54,131 nt of DNA from the NCBI GenBank assembly GCA_024654125.1, contig JANLIC010000223.1:1-54131 (forward strand), in the 5' to 3' direction. This stretch comes from Sulfuricaulis sp. Its GTDB lineage: Bacteria > Pseudomonadota > Gammaproteobacteria > Acidiferrobacterales > Sulfurifustaceae. A program made the translations under genes and the position numbers. Positions 40,967 through 50,242 of the stretch are shown here, piece by piece; the first letter of the stretch is position 1; the number at the start of each line of letters is the position of its first letter. Under the pieces are notes generated by a model. The model searched no databases. It was not told the DNA's origin and was given only the letters and a program-made list of their open reading frames with translations.

Positions 40967-41557
40967 ATGTGCGGCGTGATTGGATATCAGCCCTGTAATC
41001 CTGCTGTTGAAGCATTCGCAGCTTTCGCCCGGTTGTTCGATGAAAGCCGGGTGCGCGGGACTCATGCGTATGGGTTGGCCACCTCAGCGCGGGTGGTCAA
41101 GTCATTTGACTGGCGTGAAGTGACCGCGCAATTTGACCCAGCACAGCCTACTATCGCGCACACGCGCTATTGCCAAAGTGGTGACTGGCATGAGATGGCG
41201 AACAATCAGCCGCTCGTGGTCGGCCCCATGGCGCTAGCAATGAATGGCGTGATTCACATGGGCACCAAGAGCGAGTTCGAAGCCGCGTTCGGTATCACAT
41301 GCAAGGCTGACAACGACTCGGAGATCTTCCTACAGCGGTTGCTCGCTGGACAGGACGCGGCGGAGTTCATCGCATCGATCACGGGGTCATTTGCGGCGGT
41401 GTGGCTGCAAGACGGGAAATTGTACGCGGGGCGGAATGCGCGACGGCCGTTGTGGGAATGTAAGGTGTTTGGGGCACGGTGGTTTGCGTCCACGCGGGAT
41501 ATCTTCTTGCGGGCTGGGTTTCCAGAGCCAACAGAACTGGCGGTGGGCGTTGTCTAG
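40967..41557 (+). CDS. Class II glutamine amidotransferase (Ntn type)
   Basis: 196 aa starting MCGVIGY, with Cys2 becoming the N-terminal nucleophile after Met removal. It shows SRVRGTHAYGLAT, AHTRYCQSG and MNGVIHMG, the GATase II core that hydrolyses glutamine to ammonia. It lacks a synthetase domain, so the ammonia must go to a partner. Such free-standing GATase II proteins are found beside amidoligases (one is encoded at 42653). Here they probably act together on the hypermodified thymine or its side chain. Overlaps the next gene by eight bases. Confidence 0.85.
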   Translation: MCGVIGYQPCNPAVEAFAAFARLFDESRVRGTHAYGLATSARVVKSFDWREVTAQFDPAQPTIAHTRYCQSGDWHEMANNQPLVVGPMALAMNGVIHMGTKSEFEAAFGITCKADNDSEIFLQRLLAGQDAAEFIASITGSFAAVWLQDGKLYAGRNARRPLWECKVFGARWFASTRDIFLRAGFPEPTELAVGVV

Positions 41558-42488
41558 ACTCCCGCAATACTTAGCGTACCACCGCGAGAGCGCCCGCGTC
41601 GGCGACATTGACCCGAGCAGAGCGATGCTCCAATACCTCGCTGACCGCTACGAGATCAACGTTGAGCAGCGCTATTGGTTTGCATTTCTCTATAGCCTCA
41701 CCTACAACGGTGCCTCCGCTTTCTACCTCTACAACGAGTGGCCAGACTATGAGAACGTAGACATCGGCCGCATGAATCGTTGGTGGGAGGCCCGAGGACG
41801 CGAAGAAACAGCGTGCCAAACCGATCGCCGGTGGGTACGCTCCGCCAACATGTTTGTGCCAGCGGTGAAATCATACCGCGCGTGGCTACGAGGGAAGACG
41901 CAGGAAGAGCACTTCAATGCTTTGACAACGGCAGCAACGCCGGAAGCGCGCTATGACAAACTCTACGCTTCGGCGAAGTGCTTGCACTCCTATGGGCAGT
42001 TCGCCTTGTTCCTCTACCTGGAAGCGTTGGACACCGTGACGCCACTGGACCTGGTGCCCACGGATTTGGACTTGAGCAAGGCGTGGAGCTGCCGCAATGG
42101 ATTAGTGTATGCGTATGGCATGGACCAGCACCTAACCGTGCGGGAGACACCAACGCCCGTCAGCGCGCGAGAGGATATTGCCATAGCTTGGGCTGACTTG
42201 AGAAGTCATCTTCAGCCAGCTTCAAACGTCTGGAACATTGAGACCACGTTGTGCGCCTTCCGGAAGTGGAAGGATGGCAAGCGGTACATCGGGTCATACT
42301 TGGACCGGCAGGCTACGGAAATCCAGAAAATGGAAGAGCATGTGCGCGTCGGCGTGGATTGGCGCGTGCTCTGGCAGTACCGGGCGGAGACGTATGAGGC
42401 CGAACAGCTCATGGAGCACAGCAGCCTTGGGCTGCGCGACTGGAGGGACTGGCGGCTGGCGAAAACGCGGGTGATTGTCAACGGATAG
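41550..42488 (+). CDS. Alpha-glutamyl/putrescinyl-thymine pyrophosphorylase-like protein (clade 2)
   Basis: 312 aa from TTG 41550, overlapping the amidotransferase stop; an upstream continuation in this frame is not credible. RVGDIDPSRAMLQYL, EQRYWFAFLYSLTYNGASAF, QTDRRWVRSANMF and LHSYGQFALFLYLEAL match the AGPT-Pplase2 family, named in work on phages with hypermodified thymine. The family is helical and related to DNA glycosylase-like folds. It is thought to replace the pyrophosphate of 5-PPi-methyl-uracil in DNA with an amine or amino acid. Neighbours supply the preceding steps. Confidence 0.8.
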   Translation: MSRLPQYLAYHRESARVGDIDPSRAMLQYLADRYEINVEQRYWFAFLYSLTYNGASAFYLYNEWPDYENVDIGRMNRWWEARGREETACQTDRRWVRSANMFVPAVKSYRAWLRGKTQEEHFNALTTAATPEARYDKLYASAKCLHSYGQFALFLYLEALDTVTPLDLVPTDLDLSKAWSCRNGLVYAYGMDQHLTVRETPTPVSAREDIAIAWADLRSHLQPASNVWNIETTLCAFRKWKDGKRYIGSYLDRQATEIQKMEEHVRVGVDWRVLWQYRAETYEAEQLMEHSSLGLRDWRDWRLAKTRVIVNG

Positions 42489-42532
42489 CCGGGTTTCTGA
42501 AGTGCCACGCGAAATCCTTAGAAAACCCCCCA

Positions 42533-42619
42533 CCGACTTGCGGAGTCGGCCCAGGCGGGACGATCGGGGAGGGGCGCAGGGGTTTCTATGGGGGCGGGTT
42601 CAGAGGGCTCCTAGGGGCG
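42533..42619. repeat. Hairpin and GC-rich segment related to the 35902 repeat
   Basis: CCGACT/AGTCGG (42533-42549) is a six-base-pair hairpin without a T-run. CCAGGCGGGACG (42551-42562) repeats part of the 35902 unit. GGCTCCTAGGGGCG (42606-42619) is nearly the reverse complement of CGCCCTAGGAGCC at 36053-36065. The segment fills the 164-base gap before the amidoligase gene and may be an RNA-processing or attenuation site. Confidence 0.5.
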
Positions 42620-42652
42620 TCTCGTCGGTTTCGTAGTTTTTCGGAAGGATTT

Positions 42653-43483
42653 ATGGAAAAAGGCTGGTCTGTCGGCTGCGAGCTCGAACTCTCCGACGTG
42701 CGGCGCGACACTCCGCTGCCGGGCCGCTCCACGTGGGACCGGAAAGATTACACGATGGTGAACAGCAACGGAGTGGCCAACGACCCTCTTGGCAAGACGT
42801 GGCCCTTCGGTGGTGAGATCAACGTTGAGCCAACAGGCACTATCGACGATCAGATCAACGTCATCGATGCGGTGTTGCGAGCGTGCCGCCCGGCGCCAGC
42901 TGCCAACTACAGAAGCAACCTACATTTCCATGTCCACGTGCCCGGCTTAGCAGACAACGTCGAGCTCGTCAAGCGCGCCATGGCCTATACACCGCCCTTC
43001 GAGCTGATTGACCCGCTCCCGCCGAACACTGACAACACCCGATGGAAGCGCCGCCGGCAGAGTCACCACACCGTGTTGAATGAAAAGCAGTGGGCGCGTG
43101 TCAACGCAGCAACGACCCCAGAGGAACTCCGCCGCGCGCATGCGCCAACCGACCGCAAAGGGCGACCGCAATATCAACTAGTTCAACGCTGCGGGGTGAA
43201 CTTCCTCTCGCTCTGGGACCACCCACCGCAGACCGTTGAGTTTCGGCACTTCTGCCTCGAGTTAGATTTGGACAAGGTCCGGAATGCACTCATGTGGTGC
43301 GTGGAGTACCTGGAGACGGCATTGAATGGCGGAGAGATGCTGATACCACGCGGGCCGTTCCCTATGCAACCGCTCATTGACGTACAGCTTGAAGAGCGGT
43401 ATCGACTCACGTCGCCGAGGTATCATCCACGACCGCAGATTATTGCGTTACTCGAGCAATGGCAAAAGGACGGTGTGATTTGA
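42653..43483 (+). CDS. Amidoligase (ATP-dependent COOH-NH2 ligase family)
   Basis: 276 aa. VGCELELSD opens the domain. WPFGGEINVEPTGTIDDQ, NLHFHVHVPGL, VNFLSLWD and QTVEFRHFCLELD supply the acidic and basic residues of the glutamine-synthetase-like amidoligase family. These enzymes join a carboxylate to an amine, often together with a GATase II protein, as found at 40967. In a DNA-modification cluster the product could be a glutamyl-type side chain on thymine, or an amide on a small carrier (inference). Translation of the next gene is coupled by a TTGA junction. Confidence 0.75.
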   Translation: MEKGWSVGCELELSDVRRDTPLPGRSTWDRKDYTMVNSNGVANDPLGKTWPFGGEINVEPTGTIDDQINVIDAVLRACRPAPAANYRSNLHFHVHVPGLADNVELVKRAMAYTPPFELIDPLPPNTDNTRWKRRRQSHHTVLNEKQWARVNAATTPEELRRAHAPTDRKGRPQYQLVQRCGVNFLSLWDHPPQTVEFRHFCLELDLDKVRNALMWCVEYLETALNGGEMLIPRGPFPMQPLIDVQLEERYRLTSPRYHPRPQIIALLEQWQKDGVI

Positions 43484-43851
43484 AAGTGCTAGTGTTATGC
43501 ACCGGCAACCGTTACAGGAGCCCGCTTCTAGCCTTCTACTTGAAGCAACTTCGCCCCGAATGGCAGGTGCGTTCCGCCGGCACACGTTGTGGTTCGCCTG
43601 GTGCTGAAGTCCCCAAGACGTGGCGTCGTTGTGTGCCGGGGTGGACTGAGTCGCACAGTGCGACAAAGCTCACTGCTGAAGACCTTACATGGGCTGACGT
43701 GGTAATTGGTGTGCAGGAGTCGCATCGTCAGCAGCACCCTCAGATGATCGTGCACCGTTTAGTGGACCCAGCCTTTCGCCGCACGACGGAATGGCCGGCC
43801 CTCGCGCTGACTGTCAAAGCTGCCGCAAAAGCTCTTGTTGAGGTTCTATGA
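43480..43851 (+). CDS. Low-molecular-weight tyrosine phosphatase-like protein
   Basis: 123 aa from TTG 43480, in a TTGA overlap and with AAGGACGG upstream. VLCTGNRYRSPLLAFYL holds the C-x5-R-S phosphate loop of LMW phosphatases/arsenate reductases (CTGNRYRS). WADVVIGVQESH and a later DPAF correspond to the later active-site Asp region. It would remove phosphate from a small molecule or protein. In this operon a role in the modification pathway is possible. Confidence 0.7.
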   Translation: MKVLVLCTGNRYRSPLLAFYLKQLRPEWQVRSAGTRCGSPGAEVPKTWRRCVPGWTESHSATKLTAEDLTWADVVIGVQESHRQQHPQMIVHRLVDPAFRRTTEWPALALTVKAAAKALVEVL

Positions 43852-44396
43852 AAAAGCCTGTTATGAAGCTCTTCTCCGGTCGAGAGGTTGATCCGCTCGT
43901 CCTACGTCCAAAGGACATCTGCATTGAGGACCTTGCGCATGCATTGTCCTTATGCAATCGTTTCGCTGGACATACAAGTCGGCCCATTAGCGTGGCCCAG
44001 CATTCCGTGTTCGTCAGCCGTCTTTGTGACGGCACCGGCCACGAGCTGCAAGGGTTGCTTCATGATGGGAGCGAAGCCTACCTGTCTGACATTATCAAAT
44101 GGGTCAAGGCGACGCCACCGTTCGCGCCGTACCGGGAGTTAGAAGATCGAGTCCAGCAAGTTATCTACGAAAAGTTCAGCTGCTCTACAGTACTCGCTGA
44201 AGACGTAGAGATGGCGGATCGTATTATGGTGCGCTTTGAGGGGCAGAAAGGATACAAGACGTTTGTCATTGACCATCCTAACTATCCACCATTGACGCCT
44301 GAAGAAATCGCCCGTGTGGGAGCATGGGGGTTTTGGTCTTGGCGCCAATCAGAGGAGGCGTTCCTCACGCGGTTTCGACTGCTAACAGCAAGATAG
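43848..44396 (+). CDS. HD-domain phosphohydrolase (YfbR/5'-nucleotidase-like)
   Basis: 182 aa. AHALSLCNRFAGHTSRPISVAQHSVFVSRL followed by LLHDGSEAYLSDI gives the His, His-Asp and Asp ligands of the HD fold, the pattern found in phage HD hydrolases of about 180 aa. ADRIMVRFE is the late Asp site. It probably hydrolyses a deoxynucleotide to steer pools towards the modified base, for example by removing dTMP or dTTP. DatZ of 2-aminoadenine phages is related, but no purZ is present. Overlaps the previous gene (ATGA). Confidence 0.75.
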   Translation: MKKPVMKLFSGREVDPLVLRPKDICIEDLAHALSLCNRFAGHTSRPISVAQHSVFVSRLCDGTGHELQGLLHDGSEAYLSDIIKWVKATPPFAPYRELEDRVQQVIYEKFSCSTVLAEDVEMADRIMVRFEGQKGYKTFVIDHPNYPPLTPEEIARVGAWGFWSWRQSEEAFLTRFRLLTAR

Positions 44397-44399
44397 ATG

Positions 44400-44429
44400 T
44401 TGACTTTCCTTTTTGTAATTCTCTATAGT
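44400..44429 (+). promoter_or_regulatory. Sigma-70 promoter for the hydroxymethyluracil-kinase operon
   Basis: TTGACT (44400-44405), 18 bases, TATAGT (44424-44429). The predicted start (about 44436) is within the Shine-Dalgarno GAGG before ATG 44444, so the leader would be very short. It begins with GTTGACTTTC, like the 33452 promoter, so the same regulator may see both. Confidence 0.6.
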
Positions 44430-44443
44430 AATGAGGACATCCT

Positions 44444-45076
44444 ATGGTCATCAACATTAGAGGCACTTCCGGCTCTGGTAAGTCTACCGTCGTCTACGAG
44501 ATCATGAAGAAGGGTGTCGTCACGCCCCTCGACGCTAACCGCAAGCCAGAAGGCTATCGGGTAGACATCCCTGGTCTCCAGAAGCCGGTTTACGTAGTCG
44601 GCCCCTACGTGACCGTGTGCGGCGGGTGTGACGCCATCTCTACACAGGACGAAATCTGCCGGCGCATCCGGGAGTATTCAAGGCTCGGGCATGTGTTGGT
44701 CGAAGGGTTGCTCATGTCCCACTCCTTCGCCCGTTACGTGGCGCTGGACCGTGAGCTCTTCGCGTGGGACGAGACCCATTGTATCTGGGGGTTCCTGGAT
44801 ACGCCCTTGGAAATCTGCCTCGACCGTGTGCGAGCGCGGCGTGAGGAGCGGCGCCTGGCGAAATCCGATCCCCCGCCGTTCAAAGAACTGAACGTCAAGA
44901 ACACGACCGACAAGTGGAAAGACAACCGGGAGGTCTACCAGAAATTCTTGAAGGCACGCTACAGCGACTGGAAGCTGGTGCCGAAGTTCGGCTGGCGTGG
45001 GTCACCTGTGGCGCTTGACGCTCGGTGGGTGCCTTACTTGACGGCGACAGAGACGGTGTTCTCGTGGCTGGATTAG
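44444..45076 (+). CDS. P-loop kinase resembling 5-hydroxymethyl-dU DNA kinase
   Basis: 210 aa. RGTSGSGKST (residues 6-15) is Walker A. VLVEGLLMSHSFARY is the Walker B/substrate region, and WGFLDTPLEICLDRVRARRE is the typical lid segment. Length and sequence agree with the P-loop half of phage 5-hmdU DNA kinases, which phosphorylate hydroxymethyluracil in DNA before a nucleophile is added. The helical part, usually fused, is encoded by the next gene. It is the first gene after its own promoter. Confidence 0.8.
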   Translation: MVINIRGTSGSGKSTVVYEIMKKGVVTPLDANRKPEGYRVDIPGLQKPVYVVGPYVTVCGGCDAISTQDEICRRIREYSRLGHVLVEGLLMSHSFARYVALDRELFAWDETHCIWGFLDTPLEICLDRVRARREERRLAKSDPPPFKELNVKNTTDKWKDNREVYQKFLKARYSDWKLVPKFGWRGSPVALDARWVPYLTATETVFSWLD

Positions 45077-45903
45077 CTACCGCGCCGGAGTCGCTCTTCT
45101 GGTATTGGATAGCCGAGAGGCACGCCATCTACCTAAAGAAACAGCGCGGAGAGCCGAAGCCATGGACTACTGACCCCATTTTGCGTGACTACAAGTTCAC
45201 AAACGTGTTCCGAGAGCTGGATACTGGCACCGTATGGCTACGAAAACACTTCCTGGAGCCTCACCGCGACGACGATCTAGGGCTCGTGGCCTTCAACATC
45301 TGCTGGTACCGCGCGTTCAACTGGAGAGGGACTGGCGCGCTACTTGGGTGGCAAACTGACTGGAATGCCCCCATGGTACAAGCAAAGCTCACAGCCGTCC
45401 TCGACCGTGGGGAGCAAGTATTCACCGGGGCGCATATCATTCGTGGGGAGTTCAACCGTCCGAAGATTGACAGCATCGTAGGCGTTTGTTCAGACCTTTA
45501 CCATAGGTGTGTTGCGGCTGGTGCTCTTGTAACATGCTGTCGAAAAGAACGAAGTCTCCAATTGGTCTTTGAGATGCTCTTGCAAGTACCCTACATTGGT
45601 CCATTTCAAGCATATGAAATGGTGACTGACATGCGGCACACGCGGCTCCTCGAAGATGCTACAGATATCATGACGTGGGCTAACGTGGGGCCAGGGGCTA
45701 AGCGTGGCCTTGAACGATTGTCATTGCCGTCATTGGTTGAGTCAATGCAAGGGTTACTCTCGCGGAGCCACGTAAATCTTCCCACGTGGGTACCCGAACT
45801 TGAGATGCGTGACATTGAACATAGCTTATGTGAGTTTGACAAGTATTGTCGCGCGAAGTTTGGCGAGGGCCGGCCGCGTGCACGGTATCCGGGGGCAGCA
45901 TGA
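45064..45903 (+). CDS. Helical domain of 5-hmdU DNA kinase (separate protein)
   Basis: 279 aa from GTG 45064, 13 bases inside the kinase gene; an earlier GTG (45025) is possible. FWYWIAERHAIYLKKQRGEPKPW and DYKFTNVFRELDTGTVWLR are a near-perfect match to the HMUDK_hel domain. VPYIGPFQAYEMVTD resembles a helix-hairpin-helix and suggests DNA contact. In relatives this domain is fused to the kinase; here it is split. It probably presents DNA to the kinase and hands over the pyrophosphorylated base. ATGA overlap with the next gene. Confidence 0.8.
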   Translation: MAGLATAPESLFWYWIAERHAIYLKKQRGEPKPWTTDPILRDYKFTNVFRELDTGTVWLRKHFLEPHRDDDLGLVAFNICWYRAFNWRGTGALLGWQTDWNAPMVQAKLTAVLDRGEQVFTGAHIIRGEFNRPKIDSIVGVCSDLYHRCVAAGALVTCCRKERSLQLVFEMLLQVPYIGPFQAYEMVTDMRHTRLLEDATDIMTWANVGPGAKRGLERLSLPSLVESMQGLLSRSHVNLPTWVPELEMRDIEHSLCEFDKYCRAKFGEGRPRARYPGAA

Positions 45904-46943
45904 GAATCCTACGAGTCCGCAACGTCCACGAGGCTTTGCCACACGCACTCCAACTTCTCGACCAGGAGGGTGTTGAGCGCCCCTCGCGCAATGGCCCCGT
46001 GCTTCTGGGCCCAAGCGTCACCACCATCTATGAGCGCCCCTGTGAGCGGGTGCTGTTCTGGCCGGAGCGCGATGCCAACCCATTTTTCCACTTGTACGAG
46101 AGCTTGTGGATGTTGGCGGGCCGAAATGACGTGGCCGGCCCGGCGCGCTACACCAAGAACATCGCGAACTATAGCGATGACGGGACAACGTTTCACGGCG
46201 CATACGGTGAGCGATGGCGCCGCGCCTTTCTTGTCCCAAACATTGGGAGTCGCGACCAACTTATTGCGATTGTTCGTCGGCTCAAAGCTAACCCAGATGA
46301 CCGTCGGTGTGCACTTCAAATATGGAGTACAACGCTGGATTTAGACAACTCATCCAAGGATGTCTGCTGTAATCTCACGGCCACCTTCCAGCGCGGCTTC
46401 AAAGGTGAATTGAATCTAGTAGTCTTTTGTCGCTCCAACGACATCGTCTGGGGCGCTTACGGCGCTAACGCGGTTCACTTCAGTTTCCTCCTCGAATACA
46501 TGGCGCTATGGATTGACTGCCCGGTGGGCACTTACACACAAGTGTCTGTTAATTGGCATGGCTACCTCAGTACTTTGGAAAAGGTTAAGAACATCCGCCC
46601 TGACCACGTGAATTTCGTTGAGAACCCATACAGGAGCGGTCTCGTTCACTCTAACCAGATGTTTCACTGCCCCATTGAAGAGGCTAACAAGCGTATCGGG
46701 CAGCTCCTCTTCAGCGCCGACCATGGCTTCCAGATCGAAGACAAGTTCAACGATGATAAGCCATTTTTCAACAACGCATACTTACTGCTTCGAGCACATG
46801 AAGTGTGGCGCACCTATGAAGGAGAGAAGCGCTATACGGAAGCGCTACGAATTCTCGCGCTAGGTGACCAGAGGTCAGATTGGATTGTTGCTGGTGAACA
46901 ATGGCTTCAGCGGCGTTACGATAAGTGGCAATTGAGGCCATGA
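45900..46943 (+). CDS. Thymidylate-synthase-like dUMP hydroxymethylase
   Basis: 347 aa from ATG 45900. DVCCNLTATFQRG (Cys 156-157) holds the nucleophile. FCRSNDIVWGAYGANAVHFSFLLEYM is the dUMP-binding part, with Asn 190 in the place of the TS Asn. QVSVNWHGYL ends the core. The Asn rather than Asp suggests dUMP, not dCMP, as substrate. With methylene-folate and water it would give hydroxymethyl-dUMP, the precursor of hypermodified thymine. The long N-terminal extension and CC-N context resemble phage homologues of this class. It is followed by an unassigned gene in ATGA overlap. Confidence 0.8.
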   Translation: MRILRVRNVHEALPHALQLLDQEGVERPSRNGPVLLGPSVTTIYERPCERVLFWPERDANPFFHLYESLWMLAGRNDVAGPARYTKNIANYSDDGTTFHGAYGERWRRAFLVPNIGSRDQLIAIVRRLKANPDDRRCALQIWSTTLDLDNSSKDVCCNLTATFQRGFKGELNLVVFCRSNDIVWGAYGANAVHFSFLLEYMALWIDCPVGTYTQVSVNWHGYLSTLEKVKNIRPDHVNFVENPYRSGLVHSNQMFHCPIEEANKRIGQLLFSADHGFQIEDKFNDDKPFFNNAYLLLRAHEVWRTYEGEKRYTEALRILALGDQRSDWIVAGEQWLQRRYDKWQLRP

Positions 46944-47488
46944 AGATTAGCAGTAAGGCTGAGTTCTTTCGACTCTGGGAAGCTGGGGTCCTTGGAAATC
47001 GCACGGAATTGTGGCGTGACCCGCACGCTGCGTTTGACTCAGGTACACTTGAAATTGGGTTCCGAGAAATTAGAACAGGGGCAGGAGCAGGCAAGTGGCA
47101 GAAAGTGCCACGGGCCCAGTTCTGGGCTACTGTCGTTGAATGGCAAAAAGAAGGCCGTCAGTTCATCATGGACAACGGTGTACCTAGCGAGCATTCAACC
47201 ATGCAAGGAGAAATCTGTAGGACCCACCGTGGACTAGAATCATTTCTCGCGGTAGGGTATGGATTAGCCCCTATGCGGCTCACGATGCAAGCGGGACTTC
47301 ACAGGCACTACGGCTACGTGGAGACTCTGGTGCTCCTCGATCATTACATGGACCCGCCTTCGAGGGATGACCTGGACGACCTTCTTGAGCTTTACCCTGA
47401 TGCTACAGTAGAGGTTACGTGCTTTGACATTGGGGTTGGTAACATCCCCGGCAGATGTACTATGTTTTGGGAAGTGAGGAACTATTGA
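46940..47488 (+). CDS. Hypothetical protein of the modification operon
   Basis: 182 aa, beginning MKISSKAEFFRLWEAGVLGN. FIMDNGVPSEHSTMQGEICR and LTMQAGLHRHYGYVETLVLLD look like an alpha/beta fold. The Glu/His-rich part could bind a metal. Tightly coupled on both sides (ATGA, TTGA), so it probably belongs to the pathway. I do not recognise the family; a further transferase or a maturation factor are possible. Confidence 0.6.
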   Translation: MKISSKAEFFRLWEAGVLGNRTELWRDPHAAFDSGTLEIGFREIRTGAGAGKWQKVPRAQFWATVVEWQKEGRQFIMDNGVPSEHSTMQGEICRTHRGLESFLAVGYGLAPMRLTMQAGLHRHYGYVETLVLLDHYMDPPSRDDLDDLLELYPDATVEVTCFDIGVGNIPGRCTMFWEVRNY

Positions 47489-47954: not shown

Positions 47955-48784
47955 CCGACCTCCACGAACTCCTGACGCTTGAGCGCCCGCTCTTCGTCTT
48001 CGACACCGAGACGACCGGCGTCGACACGAAGACCGACCGCATCGTCGAACTGGGCTTTCAGCAGTGGACCGCCGACGGAATGGTAAAGGAGTACCGTACG
48101 CTCGTGAACCCCGGCGTGCCGATCCCGACTGGCGCAACGGCCATCCACCACATCACGGACGAGATGGTGAGGCAATGCACGATCTGTAAGCAGACCCATA
48201 CGATGGCCGATACTATCGAGACGTGTAACGAACCAAAGTTTCCACCGACCTTCAAGCAGCTCGCCGCGAACCTTGCCAAGGGCTTCAGCAACTGCGACTT
48301 CGCCGGGGCTAACGTCAGGTTCGATCTGCGCATCTTGACCGCCGAGATGAAGCGCGCGGGCGTTGAGTGGAACTACGCAGGCGCTCGGATCGTGGACTGC
48401 GGACGGCTGGAGCAGCTCGCCGTGCCGCGAAACCTCGGGAGCCTGCACGAGAAGTACACCGGCGCGAAGCACGACGGCGCCCACGGCGCGCTCTCTGATG
48501 TCAGGGCAAGCACGACGGTCATCGTCAAGCAGCTCGAGGCGCATGGGAAGCTTCCCCGCGACCTCGATCAGCTCCACGAGGTGCAGTGGCCGGGAATGCT
48601 TTGCGACGGTGGGCAGTTCCGAATGGTGAACGGCATCGCGACGTGCCAGTTCGGCAAGTGGCGCGGGCGCGCGATGCGGGATATCCCAATCGATTATTTT
48701 GATTGGCTTATGCGTAGCGATTTTCCCGCGGATGTGAAGGCGTTAGCAACTGACGCTAAACTCGGAAAGTTTCCCGATGCCTAA
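47951..48784 (+). CDS. DnaQ-type 3'-5' exonuclease
   Basis: 277 aa from GTG 47951 (GTGA junction). FVFDTETTGVDTKTDRIVELG is Exo I, FAGANVRFDLRILTAEM is Exo II, and HGALSDVRAS is Exo III (DEDDh). A small CTICKQTHTMADTIETC segment is inserted around residues 77-94 and probably binds zinc. A C-terminal part (CQFGKWRGRAMRDIPIDYFDWLM) matches the putative quorum-sensing-regulated/exonuclease-associated domain. It probably proofreads or trims DNA. Its stop overlaps the start of the first NUMOD3 endonuclease. Confidence 0.8.
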   Translation: MTDLHELLTLERPLFVFDTETTGVDTKTDRIVELGFQQWTADGMVKEYRTLVNPGVPIPTGATAIHHITDEMVRQCTICKQTHTMADTIETCNEPKFPPTFKQLAANLAKGFSNCDFAGANVRFDLRILTAEMKRAGVEWNYAGARIVDCGRLEQLAVPRNLGSLHEKYTGAKHDGAHGALSDVRASTTVIVKQLEAHGKLPRDLDQLHEVQWPGMLCDGGQFRMVNGIATCQFGKWRGRAMRDIPIDYFDWLMRSDFPADVKALATDAKLGKFPDA

Positions 48785-49370
48785 AAAAGGGTTCAAATTT
48801 TCTGAAGAGTCTAAAGCCAAGATGCGTGCTTCGCATTTAGGTCAACAACATACCGCTGAAACTCGCGCTAAATTAAGTGCGGCGCTGAAGGGCAAGACTA
48901 CAGGACCTAAAGGACGCAAGACTGAGGCACAAAAAGCCGCGCATCTTAAGGGGATGCAGAAGTTGCGGGGTAAAAAACGCCCTGAGCATGTGCGCGCTAG
49001 GATCAGCGCTACATTGATGGGACATGAGGGGCCTTCGGCTGAAATGCGCCAAGTGATGAGCAGCAAGGCGCGAGAGCACGCCACAGTTAATTTCAGCGGA
49101 GGCCAGATTGCCATAGCATTCGCTGAAGTCTTATCTCCCGTCGGCTACGTCCGCGAGCATTATTTATACTACGGCGAGCAGGTTGTTCCGCTTGGTCCCT
49201 TTGCTATGAGGAGACGGTTTATCCGGTTGGACTTCGCGCACCTCGAAGCAAAAGTTGACATCGAATTGGACGGAGAAGGACACAATGAACCGGAGCAAGT
49301 ATCTGAAGATGCTCGGCGAGACGCGATTCTGAAAGGACTCGGCTGGCGTGTCATCAGGATCAAAGTATAA
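48777..49370 (+). CDS. NUMOD3 endonuclease with PD-(D/E)xK-like nuclease domain, copy 1
   Basis: 197 aa. Residues 1-100 contain repeated NUMOD3 units (SEESKAKMRASHLG, TAETRAKLSAALKGK, PEHVRARISATLMG), which bind DNA in homing endonucleases. The C-terminal ~90 residues (RLDFAHLEAKVDIELDGEGH then RRDAILKGLGWRVIRIKV) form a DUF559/Vsr-like nuclease fold. A second, related copy lies at 49568. GC is lower than in the flanking genes, consistent with a mobile origin. Its start, ATGCCTAAA, spans the stop of the exonuclease. Confidence 0.75.
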   Translation: MPKKGFKFSEESKAKMRASHLGQQHTAETRAKLSAALKGKTTGPKGRKTEAQKAAHLKGMQKLRGKKRPEHVRARISATLMGHEGPSAEMRQVMSSKAREHATVNFSGGQIAIAFAEVLSPVGYVREHYLYYGEQVVPLGPFAMRRRFIRLDFAHLEAKVDIELDGEGHNEPEQVSEDARRDAILKGLGWRVIRIKV

Positions 49371-49386: not shown

Positions 49387-49581
49387 ATGAACGGCGTCAT
49401 CAAGAAGCTCGTCAAGGACAAGCGGTTCGGGTTCATCAAGGGCGAGGACGGCAAGGAGTACTTCTTCCATCAATCCGTGCTGAAGAACGTGCGGTACGAG
49501 GAGCTGGAGGAAGGGCGCTAAGTGACTTTCGAGGAGTGTGAATCGGATAAGGGCTTCCGCGCTGAAGATGTTTATGTCTAA
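49387..49581 (+). pseudogene. Cold-shock-domain protein interrupted by an in-frame stop
   Basis: MNGVIKKLVKDKRFGFIKGE and EYFFHQSVLKNVRYEELEEGR are the first two thirds of a cold-shock domain, including the RNA-binding RFGFI and FFHQS. TAA (49519-49521) then follows. The same frame continues VTFEECESDKGFRAEDVYV and ends at TAA 49579, which is exactly the missing end of the domain (LxEGxxVxFE...KGxxAxxV). In relatives the stop's position is usually Q or K. It is therefore a complete gene with a nonsense codon, perhaps made by read-through. The second NUMOD3 gene begins inside its tail. Confidence 0.7.
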
Positions 49582-50242
49582 ACACTCACCAGAAATGCGC
49601 GCAAAGATAAGCGCTGCGTTGAAAGGCCGTCCTAAATCTCTTGAAACGCGGGCAAAGATGTCTGCTGCGTTCAAGGGGCGCATGGTGACGCCAAAGCAGC
49701 GTGCAAAGATTAGCGCAACACTAAAAGGACGCCAGGTATCTGCTAGTGCCCTAGAGAACATGAAACAGGCACAACAACGCAGAACACCTGAGCACCAAGC
49801 AAGATTAGATGCGGCAGCGAAGACTAGTCGAACGCCGGAAACACGTGCGAAGATAAGCGCTACCCTGAAAGATCAACTCTCAACTCCAGAAGCGCGTGCA
49901 GCGATAAGCGAGAGAATGAAGGGGAAGATTTCAGACGCGGCTCGTGAAAAAATGCGGGCATTGATGCCCTTCTACGTACAAGGAGGACAGACGGCCGAAG
50001 ACTTTGCTTCCGTCCTCTGCCCTGTCGGTTTTATTCGGGAGTACCGTATTCAATGGGGTGAAACGTGGTCTGAGCGATTTCAATTAGACTTTGCGCATCT
50101 TGAGGGCAAGGTTTGCATCGAACTCGATGGACCGCACCACAAGAAAATCCAAGAATACGATGCAATGCGTGATGCCCTGTTACGTGCGATGGGCTGGCGC
50201 GTCATTCGAATTCGTCATGAAAGATTTGGAGATGAGAAATGA
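49568..50242 (+). CDS. NUMOD3 endonuclease with PD-(D/E)xK-like nuclease domain, copy 2
   Basis: 224 aa from ATG 49568 (or ATG 49574). About eight NUMOD3-like units (SPEMRAKISAALKGR, SLETRAKMSAAFKGR, TPKQRAKISATLKGR, TPETRAKISATLK and others) are followed by a DUF559/Vsr-like domain (FQLDFAHLEGKVCIELDG, MRDALLRAMGWRVIRIR). It is clearly related to the copy at 48777 but has more repeats. Its start lies inside the 3' end of the broken cold-shock gene. It is probably a free-standing homing endonuclease. ATGA coupling to the next gene. Confidence 0.75.
   Translation: MFMSKHSPEMRAKISAALKGRPKSLETRAKMSAAFKGRMVTPKQRAKISATLKGRQVSASALENMKQAQQRRTPEHQARLDAAAKTSRTPETRAKISATLKDQLSTPEARAAISERMKGKISDAAREKMRALMPFYVQGGQTAEDFASVLCPVGFIREYRIQWGETWSERFQLDFAHLEGKVCIELDGPHHKKIQEYDAMRDALLRAMGWRVIRIRHERFGDEK

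What the first reader, a model, noticed from the sequence alone, without database searches (positions are those of the whole stretch)
40967..46943. Thymine hypermodification cluster combining a pyrophosphorylase-family protein, a split kinase and an amidoligase/amidotransferase pair
Seen: a TS-like gene with Asn 190 (dUMP type), a P-loop kinase, a separate HMUDK_hel protein, an AGPT-Pplase2 protein, a GATase II with Cys2, an amidoligase, an HD hydrolase and a LMW-phosphatase-like gene, nearly all in overlap. Known: TS-like, hmdU kinase and AGPT-Pplase families mark phages with hypermodified thymine. Inferred: the amidoligase and amidotransferase would build a side chain containing an amide, a combination I do not know from a characterised phage.
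Basis: partly seen in the sequence, partly recalled or inferred. Interest (0 to 1): 0.88.

Follow-up and report, generated by a model that had tools for sequence, protein, structure and literature searches.

The report
Glutamine-fed thymine hypermodification gene cluster
This virus of bacteria carries an enzyme set that probably puts an amine, with nitrogen taken from glutamine, onto thymines in its DNA and then joins an acid to that amine; the parts resemble known phage pathways, but I found no characterised phage with this ammonia route or this ATP-driven capping step.

Summary
The genes are as described, in a tailed-phage contig. Corrections: the 'AGPT-Pplase2' gene is Pfam ADDT, and its model matches a solved phage 5-PmdU glycinyltransferase; a separate kinase is normal (M6-like SN1); HMUDK_hel tracks the TS gene, not the kinase. 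GATase is the partner of ADDT: it occurs without the amidoligase in 66 of 79 GATase-chosen loci, its ADDTs form one clade, and partial co-divergence is 0.84 with ADDT versus 0.01 with the amidoligase. The amidoligase is the partner of the LMW phosphatase (0 of 70 ADDT loci without amidoligase have one; one fusion). Amidoligase loci carry GATase (45), a homologue of the solved flavin-dependent lyase (18) or radical-SAM+PLP (2), never GATase and lyase together. These look like alternative sources of a primary amine on the base. Most likely: GATase ammonia, through ADDT, displaces phosphate from 5-phosphomethyl-dU, giving 5-aminomethyl-dU; the amidoligase, a glutamine-synthetase-fold ligase, then couples a carboxylic acid to it. 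No chemistry was tested. The key papers on this pathway were not available, so priority is not established.

The parts
40967..41557 (+). Stand-alone class II glutamine amidotransferase (glutaminase) domain, 196 aa, no synthase domain; predicted ammonia source
   Evidence: GATase_7 5.3e-7; best solved relatives GlmS and PurF N-terminal domains; C2, R30-G31, H65-x-R67, N93-G94, D117 conserved in nearly all of 150 relatives
41550..42488 (+). ADDT-family DNA transferase (TTG start, overlaps the GATase gene); predicted to put the amine on phosphorylated 5hmdU
   Evidence: PF18724 5.5e-18; AF2 model pLDDT 91.8 matches 8z2m, 5-PmdU glycinyltransferase of phage PaMx11, Z 18.3 over 247 residues; GATase-linked ADDT clade
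42653..43483 (+). Amidoligase (COOH-NH2 ligase, glutamine-synthetase fold); predicted ATP-dependent acylation of the base-borne amine
   Evidence: Amidoligase_2 0.0035, below cut-off; AF2 pLDDT 94.5; top structural neighbours YbdK-like ligases and glutamine synthetases, Z about 10; E10/E12/E55/H93/R179/N183/E196/R198 conserved in almost all of 110 relatives
43480..43851 (+). Low-molecular-weight phosphatase-like protein with CX5RS motif (TTG start overlapping the amidoligase stop; ATG at 43459 is the alternative); amidoligase partner of unknown substrate
   Evidence: LMWPc 1.2e-6; motif and starts; only in amidoligase loci; fused to amidoligase in L178
43848..44396 (+). HD-domain deoxynucleoside 5'-monophosphate phosphatase; nucleotide-pool enzyme, optional
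   Evidence: phrog_318 4.2e-42; also in L026, L027, L030, L107
44444..45076 (+). P-loop kinase, predicted 5hmdU DNA kinase
   Evidence: phrog_800 2.2e-16; GTSGSGKS; 41% identical over the alignment to the kinase of phage Simon
45064..45903 (+). HMUDK_hel (aGPT-Pplase1) protein, GTG start; goes with the TS-like gene
   Evidence: PF18723 1.3e-48; present in 94 of 95 loci with TS and in 0 of 123 loci with TET/JBP
45900..46943 (+). Thymidylate-synthase-like dUMP hydroxymethylase (Asn190; nucleophile Cys in the CCN motif, residues 156-158)
   Evidence: phrog_5131 3.2e-104; residues; M6-like phages among the DNA matches of this gene

Best explanation
A thymine-hypermodification pathway with a glutamine-fed amination step and an ATP-dependent capping step. 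(1) The TS-like enzyme makes 5-hydroxymethyl-dUMP, which enters phage DNA; the HMUDK_hel protein serves this route in an unknown way. (2) The P-loop kinase phosphorylates 5hmdU in DNA. (3) The GATase hydrolyses glutamine and passes NH3 to ADDT, which displaces the phosphate and leaves 5-aminomethyl-dU; other phages reach that base through a glycine adduct and a flavin lyase. (4) The amidoligase activates a carboxylic acid, possibly an amino acid, with ATP and joins it to the amine as an amide. (5) The LMW phosphatase serves step 4, perhaps by removing a phosphate from the acid or product. Shown here: gene set, families, folds, catalytic residues, and the module swaps. Inferred: every reaction in this phage, NH3 as nucleophile, the identity of the acid, and the phosphatase role.
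For: GATase-ADDT link: 76 of 79 GATase-chosen loci have ADDT and 66 of 79 lack the amidoligase; all 67 GATase-locus ADDTs fall in one clade (SH-aLRT 98) on which amidoligase presence changes 13 times; partial co-divergence GATase-ADDT 0.84 vs GATase-amidoligase 0.01 over 42 loci. ADDT model matches the solved 5-PmdU glycinyltransferase, Z 18.3. Swaps: in 67 non-redundant amidoligase loci GATase 45, flavin lyase 18, rSAM+PLP 2, GATase with flavin lyase 0, Fisher 8e-13, checked with Pfam models over whole records; the lyase is the family of 8z2o/8z79. Amidoligase tree: these modules swap while the amidoligase stays. Capping: 44 of 65 GATase-ADDT loci without amidoligase have a GNAT acetyltransferase nearby, vs 9 of 73 with it. 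Amidoligase has the glutamine-synthetase fold. Precedents: MnmEG uses ammonium or glycine to build nm5U or cmnm5U (PMC3936742); CmoY makes an amide on phage DNA (PMC12783734).
Against: No chemistry was tested. Gene swapping suggests equivalence in the pathway; it does not show the product. Ammonia and glycine routes predict different pockets in ADDT, and I could not map the glycine site. 21 of 65 GATase-ADDT loci without amidoligase show no GNAT with my profiles. A divergent amidoligase clade without LMWP (L237-L250, L256) sits beside GNAT, so the two capping genes are not strictly exclusive. L173-L176 have amidoligase and LMWP with no visible modification genes within 10 kb. Two of the flavin-lyase ADDTs (L014, L168) branch next to the GATase-linked clade.
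Confidence: 0.6

Rival explanations
1. One reading: GATase and amidoligase work as one amidating pair; ADDT installs an amino acid and the pair turns its carboxylate into a carboxamide with glutamine nitrogen.
For: The two genes lie in one cluster here and in most TET-type amidoligase loci (GATase directly before amidoligase in 68 cases); a class II GATase coupled to an ATP ligase is a known design (asparagine synthetase).
Against: GATase occurs with no amidoligase in 66 of 79 GATase-chosen loci; amidoligase occurs with a flavin lyase and no GATase in 18 of 67 loci; partial co-divergence of GATase and amidoligase is 0.01.
Confidence: 0.14
2. GATase and ADDT install an amino acid, with glutamine or a product of it as nucleophile rather than free ammonia (for example a glutamyl-type thymine), and the amidoligase extends it with a further amide.
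For: The ADDT fold is that of a solved glycinyltransferase; a glutamyl/glutaminyl-type thymine is a known phage base (cited in PMC11550810).
Against: Class II GATase domains hydrolyse glutamine and pass NH3 on; they are not known as glutamyl carriers (established knowledge of GlmS/PurF). Exclusion with the flavin lyase, whose solved homologue is linked to 5-aminomethyl-dU, fits ammonia better.
Confidence: 0.14
3. The GATase/amidoligase genes belong to an unrelated phage island, as in Melvirus phages, and only sit beside the modification genes.
For: GATase with amidoligase genes occurs in phages with no modification genes annotated nearby: Arthrobacter phage Salgado, Melvirus phages with ATP-grasp and gamma-glutamyl cyclotransferase genes.
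Against: 95 of 110 loci with this amidoligase family also carry ADDT, and most others are short or cut contigs; the Melvirus and Salgado amidoligases are only distant relatives by hhalign; the module persists across TS and TET backgrounds.
Confidence: 0.04

Closest known systems
PaMx11-type 5-aminomethyl-dU pathway (5-PmdU glycinyltransferase gp46 plus flavin-dependent lyase; PDB 8z2m, 8z2n, 8z2o, 8z79; Wen et al. 2024 as cited in PMC11946847)
   Same: ADDT-family transferase of the same fold; predicted same product 5-aminomethyl-dU
   Different: Here no flavin lyase; a GATase takes its place and the ADDT belongs to a separate clade
M6/SN1-type 5-(2-aminoethyl)-dU pathway (PMC9476957)
   Same: TS-like hydroxymethylase, kinase, HMUDK_hel (aGPT-Pplase1), ADDT (aGPT-Pplase2), with kinase and HMUDK_hel as separate genes
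   Different: No radical-SAM, PLP or Nmad5 gene found in the window by profile; GATase, amidoligase and LMWP instead
CmoX/CmoY 5-carboxymethylcytosine-glycine amide (PMC12783734)
   Same: An ATP-dependent ligase forms an amide on a modified phage DNA base
   Different: Cytosine, with the acid on the base and a free amine added; CmoY is an asparagine-synthetase homologue, here a glutamine-synthetase-fold amidoligase with the amine predicted on the base
MnmEG/MnmC tRNA wobble-uridine pathway (PMC3936742)
   Same: The same 5-aminomethyl or carboxymethylaminomethyl choice, from ammonium or glycine
   Different: RNA, unrelated enzymes, no glutaminase partner known to me
Phage GATase/COOH-NH2 ligase/ATP-grasp islands (Melvirus; Salgado and PaP3 have GATase, Salgado also an amidoligase)
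   Same: GATase and amidoligase superfamily genes near each other
   Different: No modification genes annotated beside them; distant amidoligases

Membership tests
Thymidine hypermodification cluster (TS-like enzyme, 5hmdU kinase, ADDT) | dUMP-type TS-like hydroxymethylase | tested here: met
   phrog_5131 3e-104, Asn190
Thymidine hypermodification cluster (TS-like enzyme, 5hmdU kinase, ADDT) | 5hmdU DNA kinase | tested here: inconclusive
   phrog_800 2e-16, but Pfam HMUDK_HMUD1 0.026, below cut-off
Thymidine hypermodification cluster (TS-like enzyme, 5hmdU kinase, ADDT) | ADDT transferase | tested here: met
   PF18724 5.5e-18, over cut-off; fold match to 8z2m
Thymidine hypermodification cluster (TS-like enzyme, 5hmdU kinase, ADDT) | Modified thymine in virion DNA | not testable with these tools
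   Metagenome-derived contig, no phage isolate
5-PmdU glycinyltransferase (PUGT) | Same fold | tested here: met
   VIA-align Z 18.3, rmsd 3.3, 247 residues
5-PmdU glycinyltransferase (PUGT) | Groups with the ADDTs of flavin-lyase and PLP loci | tested here: not met
   Window ADDT lies in the GATase-linked clade
5-PmdU glycinyltransferase (PUGT) | Uses glycine | not testable with these tools
   Needs an assay; glycine-site residues could not be mapped because the structure paper is not held
PaMx11-type 5-aminomethyl-dU pathway | Flavin-dependent lyase gene | tested here: not met
   No FAD-profile hit in the window; no DAO match on contig C94
M6-type 5-aminoethyl-dU pathway | Radical-SAM and PLP genes | tested here: not met
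   No profile hit in the window
Amidoligase_2 (PF12224) | Pfam gathering score | tested here: not met
   Window 17.7 bits vs 22; other members of the same family pass (L110, L178)
Amidoligase_2 (PF12224) | Glutamine-synthetase-type fold and conserved acidic/His/Arg residues | tested here: met
Class II glutamine amidotransferase | N-terminal Cys and catalytic residues | tested here: met

The most novel reading that the evidence does not exclude
A glutamine-dependent DNA amination system: a free-standing glutaminase feeds ammonia to an ADDT-family enzyme that replaces the phosphate of 5-phosphomethyl-dU in DNA, making 5-aminomethyl-dU in one step without glycine or flavin, followed by ATP-dependent attachment of a carboxylic acid to that amine. 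The GATase-ADDT module is widespread in viral contigs and works with either TS- or TET/JBP-made 5hmdU.
Probability: 0.5. Interest if true: 0.85.

Novelty: new variant of a known kind. Interest (0 to 1): 0.74.

Why it matters
If true, it adds a second chemical route to an aminated DNA base, a glutaminase-coupled enzyme acting on DNA, and an ATP-driven way to cap the amine, in phage groups that recur in metagenomes. It also sorts such clusters into interchangeable modules (hydroxymethyl source, amine source, cap) that can be tested one by one in laboratory E. coli.

Tried and rejected
GATase and amidoligase as one amidating pair: rejected on distribution and co-divergence. 'Split kinase' as unusual: rejected. 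A viral-contig search with the window ADDT alone found nothing; alignments were needed. Search for C5-cytosine methyltransferases, to ask whether TET-type clusters act on cytosine: found in 1 of 15 TET-type records, so thymine oxidation is favoured but not shown. Fusions of GATase with ADDT or with amidoligase: none seen; only amidoligase-LMWP in L178. Sequence search of the amidoligase and ADDT alignments against PDB gave no real hit; fold comparison was needed. Lee 2018, Lee 2022, Iyer 2009, Iyer 2013 and Wen 2024 are not held, and no held paper found links amidoligase with thymine hypermodification.
Full report
Observation. The window is one whole contig (C94) of a 2.43-Mb, 346-contig genome bin and is a tailed phage: portal, head, tape-measure and tail-fibre genes on the - strand, DNA polymerase and helicase on the + strand. 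Names that change: the 'AGPT-Pplase2' gene matches Pfam ADDT, amino acid:DNA transferase. The same is true of the SN1 gene annotated aGPT-Pplase clade 2, and SN1's aGPT-Pplase1 is HMUDK_hel, so the M6-type pathway already has kinase and HMUDK_hel as separate genes.

Relatives. A two-member amidoligase alignment (window and phage Simon) found 20 IMG/VR loci with no other criterion; 19 also carry ADDT, and the other is a contig that begins inside the amidoligase. A wider search gave 110 amidoligase loci, 67 after removing near copies. In the species-level genome collection one search found a single locus, so the family looks mainly viral in these collections. The commonest order is TET/JBP-GATase-amidoligase-LMWP-ADDT-kinase; the window type is GATase-ADDT-amidoligase-LMWP-kinase-HEL-TS, seen also in L107/L179 (one contig).

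Modules. Three sets swap. (a) Hydroxymethyl source: TS with HMUDK_hel, or TET/JBP; never both in 248 loci. HMUDK_hel is in 94 of 95 TS loci and 0 of 123 TET loci, and only 11 of 80 HMUDK_hel-chosen loci show a kinase by my profile. (b) Amine source in amidoligase loci: GATase 45, flavin lyase 18, rSAM+PLP 2, none 2; GATase with lyase 0. This was checked again with Pfam DAO and GATase_7 over whole records (GATase_7 missed one of three known positives, and one Parcubacteria genome has a GATase elsewhere). The lyase is the family of solved 8z2o/8z79. (c) Cap: amidoligase with LMWP, or a GNAT acetyltransferase, with a divergent amidoligase clade as an exception. These contigs were chosen by short peptide patterns and kept at 80 per search, so the counts describe this sample.

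Who works with whom. GATase: 76 of 79 GATase-chosen loci have ADDT, 66 lack amidoligase and none of those 66 has LMWP. ADDTs of GATase loci are one clade (SH-aLRT 98; quick method, long branches present), and amidoligase presence changes 13 times on that tree. Over 42 loci with all three, partial correlation of divergence is 0.84 for GATase-ADDT, 0.01 for GATase-amidoligase and 0.26 for ADDT-amidoligase. LMWP: 78 of 95 ADDT loci with amidoligase, 0 of 70 without; fused to the amidoligase in L178. On the amidoligase tree the amine source changes five or six times by parsimony, at least three times by starred branches for GATase, while the gene is kept.

Structures. The amidoligase model (pLDDT 94.5) has the YbdK/glutamine-synthetase fold, Z about 10 (Foldseek E-values alone were weak). 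The ADDT model (91.8) matches the PaMx11 5-PmdU glycinyltransferase at Z 18.3, then 8-oxoguanine glycosylases. The GATase is nearest to GlmS and PurF glutaminase domains. PurF uses ammonia from such a domain to displace pyrophosphate from PRPP (established knowledge), a close chemical parallel to displacing phosphate from 5-PmdU.

Reading. The simplest account is that GATase, flavin lyase and rSAM+PLP are alternative ways to leave a primary amine on the base, and that amidoligase or GNAT caps it. In this phage that gives 5-aminomethyl-dU from glutamine nitrogen, then an amide with an acid I cannot name. MnmEG offers the same ammonium-or-glycine choice on tRNA (PMC3936742), and CmoY shows that phages make amides on DNA (PMC12783734). 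That the flavin lyase yields 5-aminomethyl-dU rests on the title of Wen et al. 2024 (cited in PMC11946847) and my own knowledge; the products of the M6-type pathway rest on PMC11946847 and PMC6449724. All reactions in this phage are inferred. The main papers on this pathway could not be read, so I do not claim that the gene set is unreported.

Noticed in passing
45064-45903 and loci: HMUDK_hel follows the TS-like gene (94 of 95) and is absent from all 123 TET/JBP loci and most kinase loci, so its Pfam name as a kinase domain may mislead.
   Followed up: partly
L178:9230-11344: Amidoligase and LMW phosphatase fused in one open frame, in a radical-SAM+PLP locus.
   Followed up: partly
L173, L174, L175, L176: Large viral contigs with amidoligase and LMWP but none of the other modification genes within 10 kb.
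   Followed up: no
L015:15107-16984: Three tandem kinase genes in one hypermodification cluster.
   Followed up: no
L003:11851-16123: Vibrio phage 2.275.O carries a distant amidoligase and a GATase beside deazaguanine genes.
   Followed up: no
L002:8927-16531 (PQ683277.1): Unannotated sewage phage Simon has ADDT, flavin oxidoreductase, amidoligase, LMWP, kinase, HMUDK_hel, Nmad5 and TS: a possible isolate-level source for tests.
   Followed up: partly
L258:4519-15313: The only hit in the species-genome collection, a Parcubacteria bin, has amidoligase, LMWP, ADDT, flavin lyase, kinase and TET; possibly a phage contig in the bin.
   Followed up: no
46925-47488: ORF of unknown function after the TS gene with a relative in L038.
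   Followed up: no
48777-49370 and 49538-50242: Two mutually similar ORFs; the first has NUMOD-like repeats and a Vsr-like C-terminus by eye (possible endonuclease genes).
   Followed up: no
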